Source: Pseudomonadota bacterium (GTDB lineage Bacteria > Pseudomonadota > Gammaproteobacteria > Burkholderiales > Gallionellaceae). Taken from it: a stretch of 64,000 nucleotides of DNA. The position numbers were made by a program, and so were the translations under genes. Below the pieces are notes generated by a model. It saw only the letters and a program-made list of their open reading frames with translations. It did not search any database and had not been told where the DNA came from. Of this stretch, positions 33,104-45,623 are shown piece by piece. How positions within the stretch are numbered: the first letter of the stretch is position 1; every line of letters starts with the position of its first letter. The DNA lies in contig JAJYLY010000002.1 of assembly GCA_021787435.1 (NCBI GenBank), positions 215,932-279,931 of the forward strand. Reading direction: 5' to 3'.

Positions 33104-34183
33104 ATGCCTACATTTTCTTCGCCCCTCATCAACTGGCAACGCGAACATGGCCGCAACGATCTGCCGTGGCAGGGTACTGACCCTTATCGAGTGTGGCTCT
33201 CCGAGATCATGCTTCAGCAGACGCAGGTCGCCACTGTCATTCCCTATTACCTGCGCTTCGTTGCTTCTTTCCCGGATATAGAGGCCTTGGCGAACGCTTC
33301 CGAGGAAGAAGTGCTGGCCCACTGGAGCGGGCTGGGCTATTACGCCAGAGGCCGCAATTTGCATCGCGCTGCAAGAATGATTATGGAACTGCACGGTGGA
33401 CAGTTCCCGCAGCAGTATGAACAGATACTCAGTTTGCCCGGCATAGGCCGTTCGACAGCGGCTGCGATCTGCGCTTTAGGCTTTCACGAGAAGCGCGCGA
33501 TACTCGACGGCAACGTCAAGCGGGTTTTGGCGCGTTATTGCGGAATCGTCGGGCATCATTCAACAAAACAGGTTGATGAGGAACTCTGGCGGCAGGCAGA
33601 ATTACTGCTTCCGGATAACGATGTGGCCGTCTATACGCAGGCTCTGATGGACATGGGGGCGATGCTGTGCACGCGCTGCCGGCCAAAGTGCGAATCATGT
33701 CCCGTGCAGGAAGATTGCATTGCATTTCAGGCTGGTATTGTGAACGAGCTGCCCACTTCGAAGCAGAGAAAAATTGTTCCTGAAAGAAGCGCTATTTTTT
33801 TGCTGGCGATGTCGGATGGAAAGATTCTGCTGGAAAAGCGCAAATCTTCAGGCATCTGGGGCGGTCTCTGGTGTCTGCCGCAGTTCGACGAAGAGGATGA
33901 TGTGCAAAATTGGTGCGCCTTGCATGGTATTGAGCCCGACAAACTGATTCGTCATCCCAGCGAACTCGGGGAATCTGCTGATTCAATAGCGCAGTGCAAA
34001 GCGCTCGTCTCGTTTGCGCATATCTTTACCCATTTCAAATTGCACATCACGCCGCTGTTGTTATACCTTGCGCATAAACCGCTGCATCAGGCGGAGCATG
34101 TGTGGCTGAGTGTGGATCAAGCCTTGCAGGCTGCTATTCCGACTCCTGTCAGACAGTTGCTATCTCGTCTTGCAAATGTTTAG
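33104..34183 (+). CDS. mutY: Adenine DNA glycosylase MutY
   Basis: Removes A mispaired with 8-oxoG. 359 residues. The N-terminal domain has SEIMLQQTQVATVIPYY with the catalytic Glu, the helix-hairpin-helix LPGIGRSTAAAIC and the catalytic Asp in AILDGNVKRVLARY. The iron-sulfur cluster ligands follow the C-x6-C-x2-C-x5-C pattern (CTRCRPKCESCPVQEDC). The C-terminal NUDIX-like domain reads GIWGGLWCLPQFDE. A TATAAT (33066-33071) lies 33 bp before the ATG. The 3' end overlaps the convergent ADH gene by 4 bp. Confidence 0.97.
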   Translation: MPTFSSPLINWQREHGRNDLPWQGTDPYRVWLSEIMLQQTQVATVIPYYLRFVASFPDIEALANASEEEVLAHWSGLGYYARGRNLHRAARMIMELHGGQFPQQYEQILSLPGIGRSTAAAICALGFHEKRAILDGNVKRVLARYCGIVGHHSTKQVDEELWRQAELLLPDNDVAVYTQALMDMGAMLCTRCRPKCESCPVQEDCIAFQAGIVNELPTSKQRKIVPERSAIFLLAMSDGKILLEKRKSSGIWGGLWCLPQFDEEDDVQNWCALHGIEPDKLIRHPSELGESADSIAQCKALVSFAHIFTHFKLHITPLLLYLAHKPLHQAEHVWLSVDQALQAAIPTPVRQLLSRLANV

Positions 34184-35172
34184 CCCATCACAAGAACGGC
34201 GGCGCCCTGTATCCACCCTGCGCGCAAATTATCCAGCGCTAAGTTCGCTTCGTTCAGAGTAAATGTTTGTACGCGGATTTTGATGTGCAGTTTTGATGCG
34301 ATATCGAAAAATATTTCCCCATCCTGACGTGTCAGATTTGCGATGGAGCGTATGGAGTGTTCTCCCCAGAGTAGGTTATAGGGAAAAGTAGAAATGTCGC
34401 TCATGTGTATGCCGGCGCATACGACAACACCCCCTTTGGCGACATGACGCAAAGCCTCTGGCACAAGTTCCCCTTTTGGGGCAAAGATGATGGCGGCATC
34501 CAGCTTTTCAGGCGGAGCGGAGCAAGAGTCCCCCGCCCAGACTGCCCCAAGTCCGCGCGCGAAATTCTGGGTAACATCGTCATGCGCTTTGGTGAATGCG
34601 AAGATTTTTCGTCCCTGCCAGATAGCCACCTGAGCAATGATATGCGCGGCAGCGCCAAATCCGTAAATGCCGATTTTATGTGCATCCTCGCAAGCTGATA
34701 ACGCGCGATAACCTATCAGGCCCGCGCACAACAATGGCGCTACCTCGGCATCGGAATAGCCTTCAGGCAAAGGGAAGCAGTAATTTTCATTCGCGACGGC
34801 ATATTCAGCATAGCCGCCGTCTAGCGTATAACCGGTAAAAAGCGCGTTATCGCAGAGATTTTCGCGCCCGCTTGTGCAATAGCGGCAGAGACCGCAGGTT
34901 TTGCCAAGCCAAGGCACACCAACTCTCTGGCCAAGGGAAAATCGGTTGGCTCCTTCGCCATTTTTCACTACGACACCTGCGATTTCGTGACCGAGAATCA
35001 GGGGGAGTTTCGGATTGTTCAACTCTTTGTCCAGAACATGCAGATCGGTGCGGCACACACCGCAGGCATTTACCTTGATCAGCACTTCGGCTGCACCCGG
35101 CACGGGTATTGCCACCTCGGCCAATTGCAGTCCTGAAGTATCCAGAATCATCGCTTTCATTGTTTTCATCAT
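34180..35172 (-). CDS. Zinc-dependent alcohol dehydrogenase (MDR family)
   Basis: 330 residues. Catalytic zinc ligands are in VNACGVCRTDLHVLD (Cys) and LILGHEIAGVV (His-Glu); the structural zinc site is C-x2-C-x2-C-x7-C in CGLCRYCTSGRENLC. The nucleotide-binding fold is in IGIYGFGAAAHIIAQVA. The protein matches the alcohol-preferring class of NAD(P)-dependent dehydrogenases; the substrate is not readable. It ends the Hsp70-Lon-DnaJ transcript, 11 bp after dnaJ, and may begin at either of two adjacent ATGs or at a third one 4 codons in (MKAMILDTSG). Confidence 0.9.
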   Translation of the reverse strand: MMKTMKAMILDTSGLQLAEVAIPVPGAAEVLIKVNACGVCRTDLHVLDKELNNPKLPLILGHEIAGVVVKNGEGANRFSLGQRVGVPWLGKTCGLCRYCTSGRENLCDNALFTGYTLDGGYAEYAVANENYCFPLPEGYSDAEVAPLLCAGLIGYRALSACEDAHKIGIYGFGAAAHIIAQVAIWQGRKIFAFTKAHDDVTQNFARGLGAVWAGDSCSAPPEKLDAAIIFAPKGELVPEALRHVAKGGVVVCAGIHMSDISTFPYNLLWGEHSIRSIANLTRQDGEIFFDIASKLHIKIRVQTFTLNEANLALDNLRAGWIQGAAVLVMG

Positions 35173-35183
35173 AACTGTTATTT

Positions 35184-36284
35184 TTAAATCCTTGAGACAT
35201 ACCGCTTCTCGCCAAGCGCCCTTAAATTCTCATACAGTTTTCGCTCATCGTTCGTGAGTTTTTCCGGAATATGTACCGCGATGCGCAGGTACAAATCACC
35301 GCAGTGTTCACTGTTAAACTCAGGCAGGCCTTTTCCTCTGATGCGCAGAGTGGAATAAGGCTGTGTGCCCGGCGGTATCGTCACACTGACGGAATTTTCC
35401 AGTGTGGGCACTTCAAGGGTTTTTCCAAGCACCGCGTCAATCAGTGAGATCGTTTCCTGCCGCAAAAGATCCGCACCTGAGCGTTCAAAACGCGCATCAG
35501 GACGCGTATGCACCACGATATAGAGATCGCCCGCAGCGCTTTCAGGCGTGTGACCCGGTATGCCTTTTCCGGGAATGCGCAGCGCCATGCCTTCCTCGAC
35601 GCCCTTGGGGATTTTTACTGTCAGGGTCTCTTCGCTTTTTGCCTCGCCGCTGCCGTGACATTCTTGACAGGGATGCCTGATGATGGTGCCGCGCCCGTGG
35701 CAGGTGGAACAGACGCTGATATGCTGGATCTGCACGGATTCTTGATTGCGATGGGTGATGAGACGCCCAGCACCCGTGCAGGCAGGGCAGGTTTCGGGTT
35801 GTGCTCCGCCTTCGCAACCCGAGCCTCGGCAAGCCGGGCAGGTGGCAGGATGTTCAAGGCGTATCTCTTCCGGGCCGCCAGTTGCTACTCTTGAGAGCGG
35901 AATGACGCAATCAATCTCGATGTTGTCGCCCTTTGTTCGCCCTTCATGGCGGCGTTGGAAGAATCTGTCGAACAATCCGTTTGCGCCGAAGTCAAGTCCG
36001 CTGAAAACGTCGTCAAAGTTGATGCCGCTATACAGATCCTCCTGGCTGAAATCTGCGACTCCAGAGAATCCGCGAGCATCGTATTCGGCGCGTTTTTTGG
36101 GATCCGACAGTACTGCATAAGCCTCGGCGATTTCCTTGAAGCGATCTTCTGCCCCGGCTTCCTTGTTCCGATCGGGGTGGTATTTCAAAGCGAGGGTGCG
36201 AAAGGCGTTTCTGACCGTTTTCTGGTCGGCTTCTTTTGCGATGCCGAGCACCTCGTAGTAGTCGCGTTTGTCAGGGGGTGTCAT
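35184..36284 (-). CDS. DnaJ-type (class A Hsp40) co-chaperone
   Basis: 366 residues. The J domain (DYYEVLGIAKEADQ) has the HPD motif in KYHPDRN, followed by a short linker that is not the usual long Gly/Phe stretch. Four zinc motifs are complete: CPACRGSG, CPACTGAG, CSTCHGRG and CQECHGSG. The C-terminal substrate-binding domains follow. This is a second-type DnaJ embedded with an Hsp70 paralogue and a Lon-like protease, not the dnaK-dnaJ pair of the main heat-shock operon. Its start overlaps the end of the protease gene by 14 bp and has no own Shine-Dalgarno, so it depends on translational coupling. Confidence 0.93.
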   Translation of the reverse strand: MTPPDKRDYYEVLGIAKEADQKTVRNAFRTLALKYHPDRNKEAGAEDRFKEIAEAYAVLSDPKKRAEYDARGFSGVADFSQEDLYSGINFDDVFSGLDFGANGLFDRFFQRRHEGRTKGDNIEIDCVIPLSRVATGGPEEIRLEHPATCPACRGSGCEGGAQPETCPACTGAGRLITHRNQESVQIQHISVCSTCHGRGTIIRHPCQECHGSGEAKSEETLTVKIPKGVEEGMALRIPGKGIPGHTPESAAGDLYIVVHTRPDARFERSGADLLRQETISLIDAVLGKTLEVPTLENSVSVTIPPGTQPYSTLRIRGKGLPEFNSEHCGDLYLRIAVHIPEKLTNDERKLYENLRALGEKRYVSRI

Positions 36285-38688
36285 TTACGCCGGACTTGCG
36301 GTTTTTTGCGGCGAACGATTGCCTTATTACTGTCAGTTCGGCAAGTCGCGCGGCCACGAGCCGGTTGACGCTTCCATCGGGATAGGCGCCGTCTTTATCC
36401 GTTTCGCCAGCAGGCAACCCTGTCAGAAGCGCAATGGCCTGATCTGCATTCTCTACTGCATAGATGCTGAATCGTCCATCTGCTGCGGCCTCTACCACAT
36501 CGTGCCGCAACATCAAGTGCTCGACATTGGCTGCGGGGATCAGTACGCCCTGATATCCAGTCAGGCCGCGCGCCTTGCAGATGTCGAAGTATCCTTCTAT
36601 CTTTTCGTTGACAGCGCCTATGGCCTGCACTTGGCCGAATTGGTTCACCGAACCCGTGACTGCAAGGGACTGGCTGATAGGCATATTCGCAAGATTTGAC
36701 AGCAGCGCACACAATTCGGCAAGCGATGCGCTGTCGCCTTCTATCATGCCATAGGATTGTTCGAAAACTAGGCTAGCGGTAAGCGAAAGCGGCTGGTTTT
36801 TTGCATAGCGCGCGGCAAGGAAAGAGGAAAGGATCAGCACACCTTTGGAATGCGTAGCTCCTGAAAGTTTGACTTCGCGTTCGATGTTGATCAACTCCCC
36901 ATCGCCAAGACGTGTGGTCGCGGTGATCCTGTTTGGCTGCGCAAAGGCGAAGTCGCCTAGTGAAATCACGGACAGGCCATTGATCTGGCCTGTGATTGCG
37001 CCATCCGTATCTATCATCAGCACATTACGCAAAATTGCCTCTTGCAGCCTTTCCTTCAGGCGATCCTGGCGGCGTATCTGCGCATCGATAGCGCGCTGCA
37101 CGTCGTTTTTTTCGACAAGGTTTCTGCCATCGTCGCGTGCCCAGTAATCGGACTCGCGCAAGAGATTGATAAGGCTTTGCATGTGGGTGGAAAGGCGCTG
37201 CGCATCGCCTGCGAGACGCGCTGCATGATCGATGATGCGCGCCACCGCATGACAGTCAAAAGCAAGCAAGGCTTCGCGGCGTGCCAGCGTTGCGATCAGC
37301 CTTGCGTAAATCCTGTGAGTTTCAGCATTACGTTCCATGCGCTCCTCGAAATCTGCAGCCACCTTGAACAGTTCGCCGAAGTCTGGATCGTATTCCTGGA
37401 GCAGATAATAGAACAGACGGTCGCCAAACAGGATCACCTTGACGTTGAGAGGGATAGGTTCGGGTTCCAGCGACACTGTGGAAACCAGGCTATACATCTG
37501 CCCCAGCGATTCGATGCGTATCTTGCGCGATTGCAGGGCATGCTTCAATCCATCCCATGCAAATGGTTGGGAGAGAACTTTACGGATATCCAGCAGCAGA
37601 TAACCGCCATTCGCAAGATGCAGTGCGCCCGGTTTGATCAGCGTGAAATCTGTGACAAGCGCACCGAACTGCGCTAGATGCTCGATGCGTCCGACCAGAT
37701 TGCTGTAGGTGGGGTGGTCTTCGCTGATGATGGGTGCGCCCGGCTGCTGGCCGTTTGTCGCAAGCAGGTTCACGTTGTAGCGGTTGAAGTTGGAGTGCGA
37801 AACGATGGTCATGTCACCGACATGGGCCGCGTTCTCATGTCTGCGAAAATCCTCAACATTGTCGAGCATGTCCTGCTGCACGCTGTCCAGATATTGCAGC
37901 ACCTCGTTGGAGTCGGCATGGGACTGTTTGATCTCATCGATCATGTGGGCAATCACAAGCAGTGCGGTTTCGTGATCCAGCTGTCTGATCCGCTCGTGCC
38001 GTTCGCGGCGCCATTGGGGTATCTGTCTCATGAGCTTTTCCAGTCGGGTCTGGAGGGTGGCGATGATGTCTTCTATGCGTTTTTTTTCCTCATCCGGCAG
38101 CTTTTCATATTCTTCCGGCGGAATGACTTCATGATCGAGCATGGGCGCGAACGCGAAACCCTCAGGGGTGCGCAACAACGCAATGCCCTGTTTTTCGGCA
38201 TCTTCCCCGAGTGCCTTGAAAAGCTTTTCCTGTTTGGCATTGAATTCTTCCCGTATAGCTTCGGCCTTGGCGTGGTATTCCTCGCTCTCGAACAGCGCGG
38301 GAATTGCGCTCTTCAGGTATTCCACCAGCTTTTCCATGCCTGCTTGTAATGCTGAACCCTGCCCTGAAGGCAGGCAGATGGCCTGGGGCTTGTGCGGATA
38401 CGCGAAATTGTTGACATAGCACCAATCGGCCGGCTTTTGCTCGCCGCTTGCTTTTCTTTCGAGCAACTGCAGCACCATGCTGCGTTTCCCGATGCCGGCA
38501 GGACCCAGCACGAAAAGATTGTAGCCGTCATGACGTATACTGGTGCCAAAGCGCAGCGCATCCATCGCGCGCATCTGGCCTATTGTTTCCATGATGTCTT
38601 CGAGCTCTGCGGTGCTTTTAAATCCAAGCTGCACTGGGTCGCAGGAAAGATGCAGTAGGGCTGTCTGAAGTGGTGGATGTGAGGTCAT
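36271..38688 (-). CDS. Lon-like ATP-dependent protease (AAA_32/S16 family)
   Basis: About 805 residues from the ATG at 38688. A P-loop-like GPAGIGKRS lies near residue 63, and the NGGYLLLDIRKVL segment near 350 is the Walker-B-like motif of this family. A long charged helical insert (EEYHAKAEAIREEFNAKQEKL...) separates them. The C-terminal S16 proteolytic domain has the catalytic Ser in EGDSASLAELCALL and the catalytic Lys in NEKIEGYFD. It lacks the LonA N-domain and fits the LonB/LonC-like type. Upstream in-frame ATGs would extend it into the Hsp70 gene; the chosen start lies 1 bp after the Hsp70 stop. No Shine-Dalgarno; translational coupling is likely. Confidence 0.92.
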   Translation of the reverse strand: MTSHPPLQTALLHLSCDPVQLGFKSTAELEDIMETIGQMRAMDALRFGTSIRHDGYNLFVLGPAGIGKRSMVLQLLERKASGEQKPADWCYVNNFAYPHKPQAICLPSGQGSALQAGMEKLVEYLKSAIPALFESEEYHAKAEAIREEFNAKQEKLFKALGEDAEKQGIALLRTPEGFAFAPMLDHEVIPPEEYEKLPDEEKKRIEDIIATLQTRLEKLMRQIPQWRRERHERIRQLDHETALLVIAHMIDEIKQSHADSNEVLQYLDSVQQDMLDNVEDFRRHENAAHVGDMTIVSHSNFNRYNVNLLATNGQQPGAPIISEDHPTYSNLVGRIEHLAQFGALVTDFTLIKPGALHLANGGYLLLDIRKVLSQPFAWDGLKHALQSRKIRIESLGQMYSLVSTVSLEPEPIPLNVKVILFGDRLFYYLLQEYDPDFGELFKVAADFEERMERNAETHRIYARLIATLARREALLAFDCHAVARIIDHAARLAGDAQRLSTHMQSLINLLRESDYWARDDGRNLVEKNDVQRAIDAQIRRQDRLKERLQEAILRNVLMIDTDGAITGQINGLSVISLGDFAFAQPNRITATTRLGDGELINIEREVKLSGATHSKGVLILSSFLAARYAKNQPLSLTASLVFEQSYGMIEGDSASLAELCALLSNLANMPISQSLAVTGSVNQFGQVQAIGAVNEKIEGYFDICKARGLTGYQGVLIPAANVEHLMLRHDVVEAAADGRFSIYAVENADQAIALLTGLPAGETDKDGAYPDGSVNRLVAARLAELTVIRQSFAAKNRKSGVNDTP

Positions 38689-38689
38689 T

Positions 38690-40555
38690 TTATGGGTGGT
38701 GGTTTTCCCTGTATTCGGCATCCACCACCTTGGGCCCGGAAGAAGAACCGTCCGAAGGTGCCGTGTTTTCCCAGCGGGTTTCTGCATAGGGCGCACCCTT
38801 GTTAACCTTTCCGGACTGGGCATATATCACTGCTCCTGCTTCCTGCAGGAGTTTATTCAATGCTGCCGCTTGTTCGGTGGCAGTTCCGGCTTCTTTTTTG
38901 AGTAGCGCATCCTTGGTTTCGCGCAAAGCGGTTTCGATGCGCGTCCTGAGTTCGTCAGTGAGTTTGCTTGTATAGTTTGCGAGCAGTTTTTCTGCCTCGT
39001 AACATGCGGCATCCGCAGCGTTGAGTTTTTCTGCATCATTTCGACGCGTCTGATCCGCATCGGCAAAGCGCCTAGCATCTTCCATCATGTGTTTCTTGTC
39101 TTCCTCTGCAAGCCTTGTGGAGCCTGCGATATTGATGGATTGTGACTTGCCGCTGGCAGTATCCATTGCAGAAACGCTCAGGATTCCATTGGAGTCGATG
39201 TCGAAGGTCACATCTATCTTTGGTGTGCCGCGAGGTGCAGGCGGAAGGCCTTCCAGCTTGAATTCGCCAAGGCTGGTGTTGTCGCCTGCCATGGCCCTTT
39301 CGCCCTGAAACACATGTATGATGACGCTGGTCTGCATATCCGCAGCGGTGGTGAAAGTCTCGGTTTTTTTGATAGGAACAGGCGTGTTGCGCGCAATCAA
39401 AGCGGTTGCAATCCCTCCTAATGTTTCCACGCCCAGGGTGAGAGGCGTAACATCCACCAGCACGATGCCGCTCACTTCCCCTCCCAGCACGCCTGCCTGA
39501 ATCGCGGCGCCTGCTGCCACGCACTCCATCGGGTCAACGCCCATTTCGGCTTTGCGTCCGAACAGCTGCTCGAAATAACTACGCACCGAAGGCATGCGGG
39601 TAGGCCCCCCGACAAAGATGATGCGATCCACCTCGCTGGGGGTGATGTTCGCATCTTGCAGTGCCTGTTCTACAGGCTTTTTGCATCGCTCGATCACCGG
39701 GTGTACCAAGCGTTCTAGTTCGGTGCGGTTAAGATCAAGTTCAAGATGGCGGGGTTCGCCGTTGACGGTTGCAAGGTAAGGCAGGCTGATGCGGGTGGAG
39801 ACGCTGGTTGAGAGCTCTATCTTGGCGGTTTCTGCCGCTTCCAAGAGGCGCGCTGTTGCGTGGCTGTCGGTTCTGACATCGAATCCCGTGGACATCTGGA
39901 AGCGCTCTGCCAGGTGCTCGAAGATTTTCTGGTTCATGTCAGTGCCGCCTAACTGTGTGTCGCCGCTTGTGGCCTTGACCTCGAATACGCCGTTGCCGAA
40001 TTCCATGATGGTCACATCTAGCGTGCCACCGCCAAGATCGATCACCGCGATGCGTAATTCCTGACCCAGCCTGTCCAGACCGTAAGCCAGAGAGGCTGCG
40101 GTGGGCTCGTTGACTAGGCGGATCACTTCAAGCCCTGCGATGCCGCAGGCGTCTGTGGTGGCGGCGCGCTGGTTATCATCGAAATAGGCGGGCACTGTTA
40201 CGACGGCTTTCTGTACCACTTCACCAAGGAATGCTTCGGCATCCCGCTTGATCTTCTGCAAAAGGAATGCGGACAGCTGTTCCGGGGAATAGTCGCGATC
40301 CTTAAGCCTTATATGTTCGCGCCTGCCCATCTTGCGCTTAAAGCCGCTGGCAGTCCCTTCTGGATTTGCGGTCGTCTGGCGGCGCGCAGGCTCACCTACG
40401 AGCATCTGACCGTCTGCAGTGATCGCAACGTAACTTGGAAAAGCCTTGCCGCCCACGCTGATACCCTCGGAACTCGGGATGATCACGGGGCGCCCGCCAC
40501 GCAGAACGGCGGCGGCGGAATTGGAGGTGCCAAGATCAATGCCGATGATGTTCAT
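38690..40555 (-). CDS. Hsp70 chaperone, DnaK paralogue
   Basis: 621 residues. The ATPase domain starts IIGIDLGTSNSAAAVL and has the later Hsp70 signatures VIDLGGGTLDVTIMEFG and IIFVGGPTRMPSVRSYF. The substrate-binding domain carries LTLGVETLGG and DVTFDIDSNGILSVSAMD. The C-terminal end PKVVDAEYRENHHP keeps the VVDAEY tail motif of DnaK. It is shorter than DnaK by a few tens of residues in places. No grpE is nearby. It is followed after 1 bp by the Lon-like protease and then DnaJ, suggesting one machine for unfolding and degrading stress-damaged proteins. Confidence 0.95.
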   Translation of the reverse strand: MNIIGIDLGTSNSAAAVLRGGRPVIIPSSEGISVGGKAFPSYVAITADGQMLVGEPARRQTTANPEGTASGFKRKMGRREHIRLKDRDYSPEQLSAFLLQKIKRDAEAFLGEVVQKAVVTVPAYFDDNQRAATTDACGIAGLEVIRLVNEPTAASLAYGLDRLGQELRIAVIDLGGGTLDVTIMEFGNGVFEVKATSGDTQLGGTDMNQKIFEHLAERFQMSTGFDVRTDSHATARLLEAAETAKIELSTSVSTRISLPYLATVNGEPRHLELDLNRTELERLVHPVIERCKKPVEQALQDANITPSEVDRIIFVGGPTRMPSVRSYFEQLFGRKAEMGVDPMECVAAGAAIQAGVLGGEVSGIVLVDVTPLTLGVETLGGIATALIARNTPVPIKKTETFTTAADMQTSVIIHVFQGERAMAGDNTSLGEFKLEGLPPAPRGTPKIDVTFDIDSNGILSVSAMDTASGKSQSINIAGSTRLAEEDKKHMMEDARRFADADQTRRNDAEKLNAADAACYEAEKLLANYTSKLTDELRTRIETALRETKDALLKKEAGTATEQAAALNKLLQEAGAVIYAQSGKVNKGAPYAETRWENTAPSDGSSSGPKVVDAEYRENHHP

Positions 40556-40564
40556 GGAAATTCA

Positions 40565-40879
40565 CTATTGTGGTTTAGATTGAACATGATCGATCTGTTC
40601 GCCATGGTGGCCTGGTTCGGAAAAACCGTAATATCTTTCATTCAGATAATGCGCGACATCGGTGATTTCCTCTTGGCTCCAGTTCAGGTTTATATTGGAT
40701 TCCCATCGCTGCACCTGGGCCAACAGAGTTCCCCAGTCGGTCACAATCCTCCGGCTGCGCTGGTGCATTTCAGGACCATGGCAAGCTTGGCAGTGTGTTT
40801 CGTAGAGTAGTTCGCCGCGCTCAGCATAGGCCATGCTCTGGACAGCCAGCAAAAAAAATAGCAACAGAACTCTCTTCAT
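40565..40879 (-). CDS. Small c-type cytochrome
   Basis: 104 residues with a signal peptide (cleavage near AYA-ERG, residue ~19) and one heme site CQACH. The Met of GPEMHQRS or a later residue could be the sixth ligand, but this is unclear. A strong GGGAGA ribosome site precedes the ATG. It is the first gene of the cytochrome-Hsp70-Lon-DnaJ-ADH run, 9 bp before Hsp70. A periplasmic electron carrier or heme sensor joined to a protein-quality-control operon is unexpected. Confidence 0.88.
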   Translation of the reverse strand: MKRVLLLFFLLAVQSMAYAERGELLYETHCQACHGPEMHQRSRRIVTDWGTLLAQVQRWESNINLNWSQEEITDVAHYLNERYYGFSEPGHHGEQIDHVQSKPQ

Positions 40880-40950
40880 GCAGATCTCCCTGCCGGGTTT
40901 CTGATGGGGGCGGATTCCAGGCGCTGCTCATGCAGCGCCTGCGAGACGAG

Positions 40951-41226
40951 CTATTCATATGACGATGCTGATGAACTGCTGGTGCCTCGATGCGCATTGA
41001 CATGTGCGCTTTTGCCTGGCGCAGACGTTTTTTTCATTGCGGATCCCTCGCATTCGGGAATGGCCAAGGCGGGCGTCCATGATCCGCTGTGCCAGCAGGC
41101 GCCATAATTATCCCTGACGATATCGCCATATCTGTCCGTCACATAGCCGTTCCTGCCAGGAAAATCCTCGGCCATGGTCAGAGATGAAAAGAGTGAAAAG
41201 GTGAAGATCAGAAAGATGGTTTTCAT
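40951..41226 (-). CDS. Small exported protein with OmpA-like N-terminal motif, unknown function
   Basis: 91 residues; signal peptide MKTIFLIFTFSLFSSLTMA-EDF. The mature part reads GYVTDRYGDIVRDNYGACWHSGSWTPALAIPEC, which resembles the segment just after the signal peptide in OmpA-type proteins of betaproteobacteria (V-R-N-GYG-CWR-G-WTP-A-EC). No OmpA peptidoglycan-binding domain follows; the tail is Ser/Ala-rich (TSSSSASSYE). Two cysteines may pair. The AGGAGAT ribosome site 6 bp before the ATG supports a real gene. It lies between the cytochrome c gene and the BCAM0308-type gene on the same strand. Confidence 0.7.
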   Translation of the reverse strand: MKTIFLIFTFSLFSSLTMAEDFPGRNGYVTDRYGDIVRDNYGACWHSGSWTPALAIPECEGSAMKKTSAPGKSAHVNAHRGTSSSSASSYE

Positions 41227-41257
41227 GATATATCTCCTGTCGGTCGGATTAAGTCAT

Positions 41258-41755
41258 TTAGTGCTCCCAGTTCACGCGCAGCAGATTCTGTTCGGGGTTG
41301 TAGTGGAACTCCAGTTCGCCCTGATAGGCGTGATGCAGCGCCTCGCCTATGCCACGCGCAAGATGTATGTCGGTTGTGGTTACTAGAGTTTCATCCGGTT
41401 TTGTTTCTATGGCCATGATGCGTTGCATGGGGTGTTCATCCCGCTCGTGTTGTTCATGGTGGCGCACGAGGCTCATGACTTCGTCGCGATGGGACTGAAA
41501 AAAGTCGCCCTTCAGGATGACAAAACCCGCAGGATAGTGATCCTGTATGCGGTGGCATGCAGGGCAGGTGATACGGTGAGCATCTTTTGGAGGAACGCGC
41601 CACTGCCATCGGCCTTCATGAAAGACGGCGCCGCATTGTGCGCAGACTGAGGGCTCATGCAGCTTGCCCTTCGCCTTGTAGGCGTCGTGCACACGCTCTT
41701 GGAACAAGTTGTCGTGACGGGTGATTCTGCCAAAACCGGATGTGGTGTAACTCAT
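41258..41755 (-). CDS. BCAM0308-family zinc-ribbon protein
   Basis: 165 residues. A zinc ribbon is formed by CAQCGAVF and CPACHRIQ. The rest reads WQWRVPPKDAHRITCP, KGDFFQSHRDEVMSLVRHHEQHE and ARGIGEALHHAYQGELEFHYNPEQNLLRVNW. I recognise the family named after BCAM0308 of Burkholderia cenocepacia, a gene of the low-oxygen-activated locus; the protein's function is unknown. The perfect AAGGAG ribosome site is 6 bp before the ATG. The neighbourhood with chaperones, alcohol dehydrogenase and stress genes agrees with that link. Confidence 0.78.
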   Translation of the reverse strand: MSYTTSGFGRITRHDNLFQERVHDAYKAKGKLHEPSVCAQCGAVFHEGRWQWRVPPKDAHRITCPACHRIQDHYPAGFVILKGDFFQSHRDEVMSLVRHHEQHERDEHPMQRIMAIETKPDETLVTTTDIHLARGIGEALHHAYQGELEFHYNPEQNLLRVNWEH

Positions 41756-41859
41756 GTAATGCTCCTTAAGCGTTGATCATGAAGCGGGGAACGCTGGTCA
41801 ACTGATGGTTCTGTGCAAAACATACGCCCAATGTTTTCGGGTGCATATATGCCGATGGA

Positions 41860-41879
41860 TATAGGCTCTTTGGCCTATA
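41860..41879 (-). terminator. Hairpin between the kefB-type gene and the BCAM0308-type gene
   Basis: TATAGGC and GCCTATA form a 7-bp stem with a 6-nt loop, starting 8 bp after the stop of the antiporter gene on the minus strand. There is no T-run, so it could equally be an RNA-stability hairpin rather than a terminator. Confidence 0.35.
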
Positions 41880-41886
41880 GGACTTG

Positions 41887-43866
41887 CTAGGAGATAGGAT
41901 GTATGCCTTCGTGCAGGCGCTTCTCTGCGATTTCCAGCGCCTCGGGCAGGCCCAGCAGGACCAGTACATCTCCTGTCTGCAGTATCATCTCTTCTGAAGG
42001 TTCGGCGCCGTGCACGTTGTAGCGCCTCAAAGCCCTGACCTCGACGTTCAGCGCATCCAGTTCGGCCTCGCGCAATCGCATGCCGACAAAAGCGGAATCC
42101 ATTTTGAGCAGGACGTTCAGAAAGCGCGGCTGCATGTCATCGCTGATCTCATCGATGGCTTGATTGTTCAGATAGCCGTTGAACATTGCATAGCGACGCG
42201 CGCGGTTCTCTTGGACGTGGCGAATCACGCGGGAAAGTGGAACGCCTGCCAGGAGCAGCGCCTGGGAGGCCAGCATGATGCTGCCTTCCAGCACCTCGGC
42301 GACCACTTCGGCTGCACCCGCATTCTTGAACATGTCCACATTGGTGTCGTCATTGGCGCGCACCACGACTGGAAGATCCGGGCGCAGCTCCTTGACGTGG
42401 CGTAGGATCGCGAGCGCGGAATGTTTGTCCTTGTAGCTCACCACCAGCACCTTTGCGCGCATCAATCCTGCCGCCATCAGCACTTCGCGTTTGGCCGCAT
42501 CGCCGTACACTACGCTCTTCTTCGCCGCAGACGCTTCCCTGACGCGGTGCGAGTCGAGATCCAGCGCGATAAAGCGCAGTTTTTCCTCTTCCAGTATGCT
42601 GGCCAGCTTCTGCCCGCTGCGCCCATAGCCGCAAAGGATGACGTGGCCTGTGCTCGACATGCTCTGGATTGCGATCTGGTGCATCTGCAATGCGCGATGA
42701 GTCCATTCGGCAGCCGAGATGCGCCTGGCAATCGCTTCGCCGTACTGGATCAGGAAAGGTGCGGTCAGCATCGAAAGCAGCATGGTTGCCAGCGTTATTT
42801 GCATCAAATTGCCATGCAGGAGGTGCACGCCGTCTGTCAGCGTCAGCAGCACGAAGCCGAATTCGCCGGCTTGAGCAAGGCCGATGCCGCTGCGAAGGCC
42901 GACTCCCCAGTTGTCCTCGAAGGCGCGCGCCAAGAGCGCTACGATAAGCGCCTTGAGAAAAATCAACAGTGCCAGTGCAAGCAGCACCCATATGAGGTTT
43001 TCGACCAGGCTCGAAAGATCGAGCATCATGCCTATCGTGACGAAGAAGAGCCCGAGCAAGACGTCGCGGAACGGCTTGATGTCCTCTTCCACCTGATAGC
43101 GGTATTCCGTTTCCGAGATTAGCATGCCTGCGACAAACGCGCCCAGCGCAAGAGAAAGCCCTGCTGATTCTGTCAGGTAGGAAAGGCCCAGCGTGATGAG
43201 CAGCACGTTGAGCGTGAAGAGCTCGGGGGACTTCTGGCCTGCCACCACATGCAGCCAGCGTCGCATCACATGCTGGCCGAACACCAGCAGGATCAGGAGC
43301 ACAAGAGCAGCCTTCAGTAACGCATAGACCAGCGTTGCGGTGAGATTGCCAGGTGGGCTTGCCAGCGCGGGTATGATGATCAGCAAGGGGACGACCGCCA
43401 GGTCCTGGAACAGCAGCACGCCCATCATCTGCTGGCCATAGGGCAGGTTGAGCTCTGCGCGTTCGACCAGCATTTTGCTCACAATCGCGGTGGAGGACAT
43501 GGATAGTATGCCGCCCAGAGCAAGTGTTGCGCGCCAGTCCATGCCGAACAGCCAGCCTGCGATCATCACCAGAAGTATCGTGATTGCGACCTGTGCTCCT
43601 CCCAGGCCAAACACTGTGCGCTGCATCGCCTTGAGTCTTGTCAGGCTGAATTCCAGGCCTATGCTGAACATCAGGAACACCACGCCGAATTCCGCAAGAT
43701 GGCGCGTGTTTTCCGTATCAGCTATCCAGCCGAAGGCATGGGGACCTATCAGGATGCCGACTGTGAGATAGCCCAGCATCACCGGAAGTTTCAGGATGCG
43801 GCATACCACGACCACCAGCACGGCGGTGGCCAGCAGTATCAGCACGGGCGAGAGCGAGTTGTCCAT
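41887..43866 (-). CDS. CPA2 cation:proton antiporter with RCK domain (KefB/KefC type)
   Basis: 659 residues. About twelve membrane segments in the first ~385 residues include FGVVFLMFSIGLEFSL and FVAGMLISETEYRYQVEEDIKPFRDVLLGLFFVTIGM, typical of CPA2 exchangers. A TrkA-N/RCK domain follows (HVILCGYGRSGQKLASILEEE, nucleotide-binding GYGRSG) and a TrkA-C domain ends the protein. It should exchange K+ or Na+ for H+ under nucleotide or electrophile control. No KefG/KefF partner is adjacent. The start has no clear Shine-Dalgarno. It begins the minus-strand stress run. Confidence 0.9.
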   Translation of the reverse strand: MDNSLSPVLILLATAVLVVVVCRILKLPVMLGYLTVGILIGPHAFGWIADTENTRHLAEFGVVFLMFSIGLEFSLTRLKAMQRTVFGLGGAQVAITILLVMIAGWLFGMDWRATLALGGILSMSSTAIVSKMLVERAELNLPYGQQMMGVLLFQDLAVVPLLIIIPALASPPGNLTATLVYALLKAALVLLILLVFGQHVMRRWLHVVAGQKSPELFTLNVLLITLGLSYLTESAGLSLALGAFVAGMLISETEYRYQVEEDIKPFRDVLLGLFFVTIGMMLDLSSLVENLIWVLLALALLIFLKALIVALLARAFEDNWGVGLRSGIGLAQAGEFGFVLLTLTDGVHLLHGNLMQITLATMLLSMLTAPFLIQYGEAIARRISAAEWTHRALQMHQIAIQSMSSTGHVILCGYGRSGQKLASILEEEKLRFIALDLDSHRVREASAAKKSVVYGDAAKREVLMAAGLMRAKVLVVSYKDKHSALAILRHVKELRPDLPVVVRANDDTNVDMFKNAGAAEVVAEVLEGSIMLASQALLLAGVPLSRVIRHVQENRARRYAMFNGYLNNQAIDEISDDMQPRFLNVLLKMDSAFVGMRLREAELDALNVEVRALRRYNVHGAEPSEEMILQTGDVLVLLGLPEALEIAEKRLHEGIHPIS

Positions 43867-44137
43867 TTTTCATGTCGGAATGTCGGCATCCCGATAATGC
43901 CGCACTCATGCAGAGTTTGCAAAGCGGAAATGATGCGATTGTTATAGATACTGTACGGCAAGGTTTTACTTCCGTTCAGGCTGAGGTATCGAAGCCTGTC
44001 TTTCGTATCTTGCAATGGCTTATCCGAAACCTTCGCTTGCCGGATTGCGGGCACTAGCCTTCCGCAATCGGTCAAGGTACAGCGGTAATTCAGGTTGATG
44101 CTCAGTTTTGGTTATTTTGCACATCCATGTGGACACT
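43867..44137. other. Intergenic stretch, no convincing gene
   Basis: The stretch holds two inverted repeats: CGGCAT/ATGCCG near 43887 just upstream of the antiporter gene and GATTGCGG/CCGCAATC near 44045. A 61-codon plus-strand frame (43872-44057) has no ribosome site and no recognisable similarity, so I do not call it a gene. Confidence 0.4.
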
Positions 44138-44401
44138 CTATCTTTCATATTGGTCATCAAACAATATTCCCTTTCCTGTGGCCAATAGTGCCGGAATACT
44201 TTCGCCGAAGTATTGTTCCCACCCTGCCTCGCAGACGTTGTAACACTTAACTTCAGGTACCAAACCGATATGAGTCAGACCAATTATCGTTTGATTTTTC
44301 TCTTCTGAAATTTCAAACACAATTCTTGTGTTTTTCCATTCAGTTTTGTCATTGAGCCAAGGCATATTGCAATCGGTAACCAGCGAAACACATGTATGCA
44401 A
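44138..44401 (-). pseudogene. SRPBCC/AHSA1-type protein, C-terminal fragment
   Basis: The 87-codon frame matches the second half of small SRPBCC (Hsp90 ATPase activator-like) proteins: WLNDKTEWKNTRIVFEISEE, IGLTHIGLVPEVKCYNVCEAGWEQYF and ALLATGKG near the end. The family is ~145 residues, and the first ~65 are absent: upstream in frame lies a TGA, and the remaining start is TTG without a ribosome site. The region is visibly richer in A+T than its neighbours. It is most likely a broken, possibly imported, gene. Confidence 0.75.
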
Positions 44402-44537
44402 GAGAGTGTTCTGTTTAAGCTGTCATGTATTCGGTAACTCGCTGATTATAATCAATCTCTATATTATTATGCGTCAAGTTCTTCTGCATGCTGAGCGAAC
44501 TATTGCGCACCGAAAAACGGCCATTTAAATTTTTTGT
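44402..44537. other. AT-rich spacer
   Basis: An AT-rich stretch (for example TTATAATCAATCTCTATATTATTATG) between the SRPBCC fragment and the ADP-ribosylglycohydrolase-type gene. I see no gene in it. It could hold a promoter, but no neighbouring gene points away from it with a clear ribosome site. Confidence 0.4.
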
Positions 44538-45623
44538 TCAGCTTTTTTCGGCCATCTGATTGGAAAGCTGCCCGGCCAGTTGCAGCAATTGTGCGCTTTT
44601 TTCCAGCCCATCGATGAAGCGTTGCGGAATGCCGGAAAGGCCTGCCATTGCGCCTGTCAGGGCGCCGGTGAGTATCGCACGCGACTGATTTTGTCCTCCC
44701 CCATTCACGGCATGAAGAACGGCGGACTCGAAATCGTCAGGAAAGCGCGACGCCAGATAGTAGGCGGCGGGAAACTGGTGATACACGGCGCAGGGCATGC
44801 CATACACCAGTGATACCTTCCAGGCAGGATAAATACGAATGCCTGGATCATGGGCGGCTCGTGCGATGCAGGAAGGAGTAAGCAGCGCATCGGGCGAGGG
44901 GAATTGCCCCGCGCATGGCATTTCAGCATTGCCAAGTCCGGGCGCTTGCAAATTGCCCGTCGTGACCGTATGGAACGGCAGTTCGCCGGTTTTCACCCGA
45001 GCCATTAATTTGCCTGATGTCTCCCCATCCAGCCTGTTCCCTTCCACTAGCAGGCCTAGCACGGCGCAGAAGGCAACGGTCATTGCGACTACGGTTCCGT
45101 CGGTCTGGGTCAGCACCGTGTTGCTGGTAACTGCCGAGGCCAGTTCTGCTGGTTGCAGTGCGTAGCGCACCGCAATGGCAAGTGCTCGTTCCGCAGCTTC
45201 GGTGGTGTCAGCATTGCCCCCGACTAGACCCCAGGGCAACCCCTGCAATATGCGCTTGCGCCAGGCTTCGCGTATGGACTGACTGGTGTAACCGCCGGGG
45301 CCGTTCATCGGCGTGCCATTTATCAGAGGGAAGAAATCCTGATCCATGCGAAGGCAGAAATCCGTTTCATCGTAGCGGACTTGTTCAACCAGCGAACCCA
45401 GCGTGAGCCGCAGCAGGGTACCTGCCTGTGATGATTGACCGGCCTTCAGCCCTGAATGGTAGCGGTCAGGCTTGGGAGTTGTATAGTTATCAATCCAGTC
45501 GCCGTATTCGCGGCGAAGTTCATCCAGGTCATAGTACCAGTGGGGACCCAGCGCCAGCGCATCGCCGACGAACGCGCCCATCAGTGCGCCCATGGCGCGA
45601 TCTTGCAGGGACAAGGCAGTCAT
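44538..45623 (-). CDS. ADP-ribosylglycohydrolase-fold protein, J1-crystallin-like type
   Basis: 361 residues. The N-terminal family motif is MGALMGAFVGDALALGPHWYYD. In true ADP-ribosylglycohydrolases the late metal site reads GGDTDT; here the same place reads NGGGQNQSRAILTGALTGAMAGLSGIPQRFIDGL, the pattern I associate with the J1-crystallin-like branch. Two metal-binding aspartates are therefore missing, so hydrolase activity on ADP-ribosyl-protein is doubtful. No draT or ADP-ribosyltransferase gene is adjacent. A conserved but biochemically unassigned role is likely. Confidence 0.85.
   Translation of the reverse strand: MTALSLQDRAMGALMGAFVGDALALGPHWYYDLDELRREYGDWIDNYTTPKPDRYHSGLKAGQSSQAGTLLRLTLGSLVEQVRYDETDFCLRMDQDFFPLINGTPMNGPGGYTSQSIREAWRKRILQGLPWGLVGGNADTTEAAERALAIAVRYALQPAELASAVTSNTVLTQTDGTVVAMTVAFCAVLGLLVEGNRLDGETSGKLMARVKTGELPFHTVTTGNLQAPGLGNAEMPCAGQFPSPDALLTPSCIARAAHDPGIRIYPAWKVSLVYGMPCAVYHQFPAAYYLASRFPDDFESAVLHAVNGGGQNQSRAILTGALTGAMAGLSGIPQRFIDGLEKSAQLLQLAGQLSNQMAEKS

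What the first reader, a model, noticed from the sequence alone, without database searches (positions are those of the whole stretch)
34180..40879. Compact operon joining a cytochrome c, Hsp70, Lon-like protease, DnaJ and alcohol dehydrogenase
Five genes lie head to tail on the minus strand with spacings of 9, 1, -14 and 11 bp. Hsp70 and DnaJ are not the usual dnaK-dnaJ pair (no grpE; DnaJ lacks a long Gly/Phe stretch), and the protease carries an intact Ser (GDSAS) and Lys (NEKIEG) dyad. The protease has no visible Shine-Dalgarno sequence and neither does DnaJ, so output of each depends on the gene before it. This looks like a self-contained unfold-and-degrade machine, with a periplasmic heme protein in front that might sense redox or oxygen. 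I know of no description of this exact set as one system.
Basis: partly seen in the sequence, partly recalled or inferred. Interest (0 to 1): 0.8.

Follow-up and report, generated by a model that had tools for sequence, protein, structure and literature searches.

The report
Motorless protease paired with Hsp70–DnaJ chaperones
In a Gallionellaceae-family bacterium, one five-gene run joins a Lon-type protease whose sequence has lost its ATP-motor residues to a spare Hsp70–DnaJ chaperone pair, which would likely loosen damaged proteins and hand them to the protease in place of the missing motor.

Summary
In detail: five genes lie head to tail on the minus strand (40879 to 34180) with gaps of 9, 1, -14 and 11 bp. 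The protease is not an ATP-driven Lon but LonC-type; its best solved match is Meiothermus LonC, an ATP-independent protease that cuts only unfolded proteins. In 119 aligned sequences the Walker B glutamate position is never Glu, while the Ser–Lys dyad is kept in 118 of 118. The Hsp70 is the genome's third, with its own DnaJ; the only GrpE found is in the canonical dnaK operon. Hsp70–LonC–DnaJ in this order recurs in six other genomes (five of the same family, one Sulfuritalea). Elsewhere the commonest gene after LonC is universal-stress-protein-like (53 of 120 loci, six named phyla), but in 0 of 18 members of the clade holding the window: apparently a partner swap. So 'unfold and degrade' is partly supported, with unfolding predicted to come from Hsp70–DnaJ, not the protease. 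Cytochrome c and alcohol dehydrogenase are less constant members; redox sensing is unsupported. Coupling is untested, and close relatives carry LonC without the chaperones.

The parts
40565..40879 (-). small monohaem cytochrome c (CQACH) with a signal-peptide-like start (by eye); orphan family
   Evidence: Cytochrom_C 25.0 bits, cut-off 21.3; 18 relatives found; CxACH and H39 invariant, no invariant Met after the start among 15 aligned
38690..40555 (-). alternative Hsp70 (third Hsp70 of the genome); lacks 24 residues present in the genome's DnaK
   Evidence: 42-44% identical to own DnaK, 36-39% to own HscA
36271..38688 (-). LonC-type protease, 805 aa: degenerate Walker A (GPAGIGKRS) and Walker B (GGYLLLDI), intact Ser653/Lys696 dyad
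   Evidence: LonC_helical, AAA_32, LonB_AAA-LID, Lon_C; PDB MtaLonC, E 5.4e-88; TM 0.72/0.80 to 8k8v
35184..36284 (-). DnaJ next to the alternative Hsp70 (J domain, Zn domain, C-terminal domain)
   Evidence: 38% to canonical DnaJ; a relative lies near this Hsp70 in other genomes
34180..35172 (-). zinc-binding alcohol dehydrogenase family protein (TIGR02822)
   Evidence: 347.9 bits, cut-off 283.5
40951..41226 (-). 91-aa ORF upstream, same strand
   Evidence: no Pfam match; weak match to OmpABordt, far below cut-off; relative in L039
41258..41755 (-). BCAM0308-family protein (NCBIfam lxa_BCAM0308)
   Evidence: 233.4 bits, cut-off 100; relatives near LonC or this Hsp70 in some other loci
41887..43866 (-). 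Kef-type cation/proton antiporter; whether it shares the transcript is unknown
   Evidence: same order in L039

Best explanation
The run is likely a stress proteostasis operon in which a LonC-type protease, whose ATPase motifs are degenerate while its Ser-Lys dyad is intact, is encoded between an alternative Hsp70 and its DnaJ, and these chaperones would supply the ATP-driven unfolding that the protease is predicted to lack. Proposed steps: (1) DnaJ binds damaged or misfolded proteins (inferred from the family); (2) Hsp70 uses ATP to pull or keep them open, with the genome's single GrpE or none as exchange factor (inferred); (3) LonC, a chamber that admits only unfolded chains, degrades them without spending ATP (inferred from Meiothermus LonC); (4) the ADH and cytochrome c serve the same stress state, perhaps low oxygen or Fe(II)/oxygen damage, without being part of the machine (speculative). 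Shown here: gene order and its recurrence, motif loss with dyad retention, a distinct Hsp70-DnaJ pair, genome-level co-occurrence of this Hsp70 with LonC. Not shown: transcription, interaction, activity.
For: LonC identity: Pfam LonC_helical/AAA_32/Lon_C; MtaLonC is the best PDB match by sequence and by fold. Motor loss: in 119 aligned sequences the Walker B Glu position is A/V/I/T/M in 119 of 119; the Walker A residue after Lys is H/R/Y/Q/F in 107, Ser in 4 and Thr in 1 of 119; dyad Ser and Lys in 118 of 118 with a residue there. The genome's own LonA keeps GPPGVGKTS and FLLDEVD, a positive control. MtaLonC has no ATPase activity and degrades only unfolded proteins (PMC3391209, abstract and passages). 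Order Hsp70-LonC-DnaJ in 7 genomes including the window: G000, G020/L039, G044/L147, G011/L149, G048/L151, G037/L154, Sulfuritalea L040; Hsp70-DnaJ-LonC in Rhodocyclus L072, divergent Hsp70/LonC in Lacisediminimonas L042. Co-occurrence: 7 of 7 Hsp70-clade genomes among 60 of the family have this branch of LonC against 16 of 60 overall, p 3e-5, or 1.1e-4 without the own genome. An independent J-protein + ADH + LonC run lies on a Leisingera plasmid.
Against: Close LonC relatives (71-73% identical: L150, L152, L153) have no Hsp70/DnaJ of this kind beside them, and their genomes (G057, G050, G054) show no member of this Hsp70 clade. Two loci have LonC-DnaJ without this Hsp70 (L148 in G034, 73% complete; L155 in G018). 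G056 has this Hsp70 away from LonC. Of the 11 genomes outside the family in which this Hsp70 was found, 1 (G073) has LonC near it, 8 have LonC elsewhere and 2 (G251, G685) have no match at E 1e-150. So coupling is not obligate. The exact order is confined to one family plus one Sulfuritalea MAG. Shared stress-island ecology could explain co-occurrence, and the p-values treat related genomes as independent. No expression, binding or activity data.
Confidence: 0.5

Rival explanations
1. Co-regulated but independent stress genes: the Hsp70-DnaJ pair refolds proteins and LonC separately clears unfolded ones; the genes share an island and perhaps a promoter, with no hand-over.
For: The Hsp70-DnaJ pair lies near Hsp20 genes, and in some loci PEBP, CBS or PCM genes, without LonC (L202, L220, L222, L223); LonC occurs without these chaperones in near relatives.
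Against: LonC lies exactly between Hsp70 and DnaJ in seven genomes; on the Hsp70 tree that arrangement needs at least two changes, which may be two gains or one gain with losses, so it does not decide the matter.
Confidence: 0.37
2. LonC is a regulatory protease gated by a partner (DnaJ here, a universal stress protein elsewhere), destroying one or a few regulators rather than bulk damaged protein.
For: A universal-stress-protein-like gene directly follows LonC in 53 of 120 loci, overlapping by 4 bp in 16 of the 53; LonC-DnaJ without this Hsp70 in L148 and L155.
Against: MtaLonC degrades several unfolded substrates in vitro (PMC3391209, passages). No candidate regulator was recognised in the locus, but none was searched for.
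Confidence: 0.1
3. Redox-sensing unit: the cytochrome c reports oxygen or redox state to the chaperone-protease genes.
For: A homologous cytochrome c lies upstream of the Hsp70 in four genomes (window, L039, L149, L202); near-consensus FNR sites lie upstream of LonC in 8 of 113 regions (p 0.004).
Against: The cytochrome is predicted to lie outside the cytoplasm, the chaperones inside, and no signalling protein is among the genes named; no one-mismatch FNR site in the 400 bp before the window's cytochrome c or Hsp70; no relative of the cytochrome was seen in the other Hsp70-LonC loci.
Confidence: 0.03

Closest known systems
LonC (MtaLonC, Meiothermus taiwanensis; MEROPS S16 LonC subfamily)
   Same: Pfam architecture, degenerate Walker A/B, Asp before the catalytic Ser, Ser-Lys dyad, overall fold
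   Different: About 70 residues longer than the 732-residue PDB chains; gene embedded between Hsp70 and DnaJ; activity untested
Canonical dnaK-dnaJ-grpE
   Same: Hsp70 and a type-I DnaJ encoded close together, with HPD, Zn-finger repeats, DnaK-like linker and tail
   Different: Separate paralogs (42-44% and 38% identical to the genome's own), 24 residues missing, no grpE, a protease gene between the two
[quoted passage not shown]
   Same: Idea of a proteostasis island; some relatives of this unit have Hsp20 and L151 a DegP-like protease, and a Kef antiporter lies upstream here
Burkholderia low-oxygen-activated (lxa) locus
   Same: A BCAM0308-family protein lies just upstream; lxa encodes six universal stress proteins and a heat-shock protein (PMC6127331, passages)
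   Different: No Hsp70-LonC-DnaJ mentioned in the passages read; oxygen control not shown here

Membership tests
LonC subfamily of Lon proteases | Degenerate AAA motifs: Walker B Glu and Walker A Thr/Ser missing | tested here: met
   Window GPAGIGKRS and GGYLLLDI; 0 Glu of 119; Ser 4 and Thr 1 of 119
LonC subfamily of Lon proteases | Intact Ser-Lys dyad with Asp before Ser | tested here: met
   GDSAS; Ser and Lys in 118 of 118 with a residue there
LonC subfamily of Lon proteases | LonC helical domain and LonC fold | tested here: met
   PF20437, 54 bits, cut-off 24; 8k8v, TM 0.72/0.80; model pTM 0.58
LonC subfamily of Lon proteases | No ATPase activity; degrades only unfolded substrates | not testable with these tools
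   Biochemistry seen for MtaLonC only (PMC3391209)
Canonical DnaK (TIGR02350) | Score over the curated equivalog cut-off | tested here: not met
   739.9 bits against 822.55 (but 742.2 over the 648 cut-off of NF001413, also named DnaK)
Canonical bacterial DnaJ (TIGR02349) | Score over the curated equivalog cut-off | tested here: not met
   355.9 against 377.2 (but 340.5 over the 338 cut-off of subfamily NF008035)
tLST / locus of heat resistance | Core genes dna-hsp20-clpG together | tested here: not met
   none recognised among the eight co-oriented genes 34180-43866; the rest of the genome was not searched for them
lxa locus | Induction by low oxygen | not testable with these tools
   Indirect only: FNR-like sites before LonC in 8 of 113 regions, none before the window's cytochrome c or Hsp70
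Zinc-binding ADH family TIGR02822 | Score over the curated cut-off | tested here: met
   347.9 against 283.5

The most novel reading that the evidence does not exclude
LonC proteases are 'trans-powered': having lost their built-in motor, they take a partner gene in its place. The older-looking partner is a universal-stress-type protein encoded directly downstream in six named phyla; in one betaproteobacterial clade that partner was replaced by a dedicated Hsp70-DnaJ pair, making a two-part machine in which Hsp70 does what the AAA+ ring does in LonA and LonB.
Probability: 0.27. Interest if true: 0.82.

Novelty: new variant of a known kind. Interest (0 to 1): 0.6.

Why it matters
LonA and LonB proteases carry their own AAA+ unfolding ring; LonC is the exception, and its discoverers called the functional roles of such Lon-like proteases unknown (PMC3391209, passage). 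A natural gene run that places Hsp70 and DnaJ on either side of LonC gives a concrete, testable answer: unfolding by Hsp70, cutting by a motorless chamber. The wider pairing of LonC with a universal-stress-protein-like gene, found on the way, offers a second partner to test, and could give a biochemical role to one branch of a stress-protein family whose mechanism is poorly understood (the last point from general knowledge).

Tried and rejected
ATP-driven Lon: rejected on motif loss in 119 aligned sequences. LonC fused to Hsp70 or a universal stress protein as proof of direct partnership: the longest frames reported at G234 and G159 (1,412 and 1,509 aa) looked by eye like shadow frames, not fusions, and the 120 proteins listed of 7,996 hits show no such domain; the rest were not seen. 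ATP binding by the universal-stress-type partner as a general rule: the motif G-2X-G-9X-G(S/T) is in only 15 of 53, so dropped. Heat-shock (sigma-32, CIRCE) signatures before the Hsp70s: none in 14 Hsp70 upstream regions apart from one loose match at -366 in L202. FNR control of the window operon: one-mismatch sites lie 588 bp before Kef and 40 bp before the ADP-ribosylglycohydrolase, but the window has 42 sites at up to two mismatches against 33.5 expected, reached by 7 of 100 shuffles; the Kef site is not in L039. Promoter and terminator scan of 33900-44700: 6 promoter-like sites against 6.7 in shuffles, 17 terminator-like against 11.4, no clear boundary. This Hsp70 clade on plasmids: 51 records match, all under 60% identity. 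The second LonC-like gene at G000:C4: 39% identical, also motif-degenerate, no chaperone recognised beside it. Papers: no description of Hsp70-LonC-DnaJ or LonC-universal stress protein was seen in the listings of searches, nor in the passages read; the library is open-access PMC only.
Full report
What was checked first. The same strand continues upstream with a 91-aa ORF, a BCAM0308-family protein and a Kef-type antiporter. The nine-gene order from ADP-ribosylglycohydrolase to ADH, then mutY on the other strand, is kept in the nearest relative L039/G020 (83% protease identity).

The genome. The window lies at G000:C20:215932-279931 of a 2.73-Mb, 98.6% complete genome. Its GTDB family holds G004, whose contig length equals that of a Gallionellaceae MAG (L056), and G044, whose contig length equals that of Ferrigenium kumadai. 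So the host belongs to the Gallionellaceae, a family known for microaerophilic iron oxidation (PMC8265223 and PMC10734462, search listing).

The protease. Pfam gives AAA_32, LonB_AAA-LID, LonC_helical and Lon_C. The closest solved structure by sequence is MtaLonC (4fwd, E 5.4e-88), and an AlphaFold model (mean pLDDT 81.7, pTM 0.58, 27-row alignment) matches MtaLonC best (8k8v, TM 0.72/0.80). In 119 aligned sequences the position of the Walker B Glu is A 86, V 17, I 12, T 2, M 2. The Walker A residue after Lys is H 48, R 30, Y 11, Q 11, F 7, S 4, L 4 and one each of T, A, N, D, and the Lys itself is Arg in 18. The dyad Ser and Lys are in 118 of 118 with a residue there. The genome's LonA has intact motifs. 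MtaLonC shows matching losses, has no ATPase activity, binds nucleotide, and degrades unfolded but not folded proteins (PMC3391209: abstract and passages; PMC9569914: passages). So the sequence predicts a protease with no unfolding motor. A second, 39%-identical LonC-like paralog at G000:C4 is degenerate in the same motifs.

The Hsp70 and DnaJ. The genome encodes a canonical DnaK (42% identical, on C31 with GrpE and DnaJ beside it), an HscA (36%) and this third Hsp70. A GrpE search found one. The third Hsp70 lacks 24 residues that the genome's DnaK has in its N-terminal part and keeps the NEPTAA, linker (VLVDVTPLTLG) and VVDAE tail segments; its full-length relatives share this. The Hsp70 clade (70-88% identical) was found in 7 of 60 family genomes, 7 of 300 order genomes, 7 of 369 class genomes and 2 of 249 phylum genomes; the draws overlap and each includes the window. 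In 19 of the 21 Hsp70 loci examined (window included) a DnaJ relative lies on the same strand next to it or within about 3 kb (in L219 as two overlapping fragments, in L194 cut by the contig end); L196 is cut by a contig end and L224, whose Hsp70 has an internal stop, shows none.

Conservation of the order. Hsp70–LonC–DnaJ on one strand: window, L039, L147, L149, L151, L154 (all the same family) and L040 (Sulfuritalea MAG). Near versions: L072 (Rhodocyclus, Hsp70–DnaJ–LonC), L042 (Lacisediminimonas, Hsp70 and LonC back to back), L159 (LonC 3.4 kb after DnaJ). L148 and L155 have LonC–DnaJ without this Hsp70. Of the 60 family genomes 16 have a LonC of this branch (53% identity or more over nearly the whole length) and 7 have this Hsp70; all 7 of 7 have both (p 3e-5; 1.1e-4 without the own genome). 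In 6 of the 7 the genes are adjacent, in G056 not. In the order draw 6 of 7 against 53 of 300 (p 1.4e-4; 4 of 5, p 0.003, without own genome and congener). Of the 11 genomes outside the family with this Hsp70, 9 have a LonC at E below 1e-150, two of these only 43% identical; in one (G073) it is near the Hsp70 and in G533 it is about 21 kb away on the same contig.

Neighbourhood. In relatives the unit sits among protein-care genes: Hsp20 (L149, L151, L202), PEBP and CBS (L149, L202), protein-isoaspartate methyltransferase (L147, L151, L202), a DegP-like protease and an aminopeptidase N (L151). The cytochrome c lies upstream in four genomes (window, L039, L149, L202). It is an orphan: 18 relatives found in 5.8 billion proteins by a word-based search, with CxACH and one further His invariant and no invariant Met after the start among 15 aligned. 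The ADH occurs with LonC in three lineages: window/L039, L071 (overlapping LonC by 4 bp, 61% identical) and a Leisingera plasmid (58% identical), where the run is CbpA (DnaJ type)–CbpM–DUF5765–ADH–LonC–universal-stress-like protein.

Partner swap. Taking the gene directly after LonC in 122 loci (120 without duplicates), 53 carry a member of one universal-stress-protein-like cluster. Of six members scanned, four pass the Pfam cut-off (L049, L048, L066, L077) and two fall below it (L096, L233). By record titles the 53 include Pseudomonadota 21, Chloroflexota 10, Chlorobiota 7 and one each of Planctomycetota, Thermodesulfobacteriota and Bdellovibrionota; 12 carry no phylum name in their record (nine are from the window's order). 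On the LonC tree the 18-member clade that holds the window (support 100) has 0 of 18 with that partner, 7 with Hsp70–LonC–DnaJ, 4 near versions and 7 with neither; nearby clades have the stress protein in some members. The stress-protein label needs many changes on the tree (23 when unlabelled rows count as lacking it), so it is gained and lost often. This is a FastTree tree with local support only. On the Hsp70 tree the LonC-between state needs at least two changes.

Reading. The most economical account is that a protease which lost its motor depends on other proteins to present open chains. In this lineage the flanking genes are the best-known ATP-driven unfolding pair of bacteria. The hand-over itself is inferred. 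Microaerophilic iron oxidisers meet Fe(II)/oxygen damage and have little energy to spend, which would favour an ATP-free degrading step (inference). FNR-like sites upstream of LonC occur in 8 of 113 regions (p 0.004) and before Hsp70 in 3 of 14 regions, but not before the window's unit, so oxygen control is a lead only.

Limits. The order is not obligate, as the counter-examples show. The co-occurrence tests treat related genomes as independent, so the p-values are optimistic. Gene calls were mechanical ORFs. No expression or interaction data exist here. The literature search covered open-access PMC papers only.

Noticed in passing
53 of 120 LonC loci, e.g. L049:12415-13260, L059, L096, L104: A universal-stress-protein-like gene directly follows LonC, overlapping by 4 bp in 16 of 53, in six named phyla; no description seen in the searches made.
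   Followed up: partly
L233 (Leisingera caerulea plasmid NZ_CP081087.1) 4955-11142: CbpA-CbpM-DUF5765-ADH-LonC-universal-stress-like run near repABC plasmid genes: an independent J-protein/ADH/LonC association.
   Followed up: partly
window 40565-40879: Orphan monohaem cytochrome c family with an invariant His five residues after the CxACH His and no invariant Met after the start.
   Followed up: partly
window 43867-44537: The spacer between the ADP-ribosylglycohydrolase and Kef genes differs from L039, where it seems to hold a YefM/YoeB-like pair (by eye); the window has a short ORF there instead (by eye).
   Followed up: no
G000:C4:86695-89013 (L170): Second LonC-like paralog, 39% identical, with Walker A GEVGSGRSS and Walker B LLLHLRD; matches of about 39-41% identity are common in the family draw.
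   Followed up: partly
L155:11322-12412: The DnaJ after LonC is split into two overlapping ORFs, a frameshift or assembly error.
   Followed up: no
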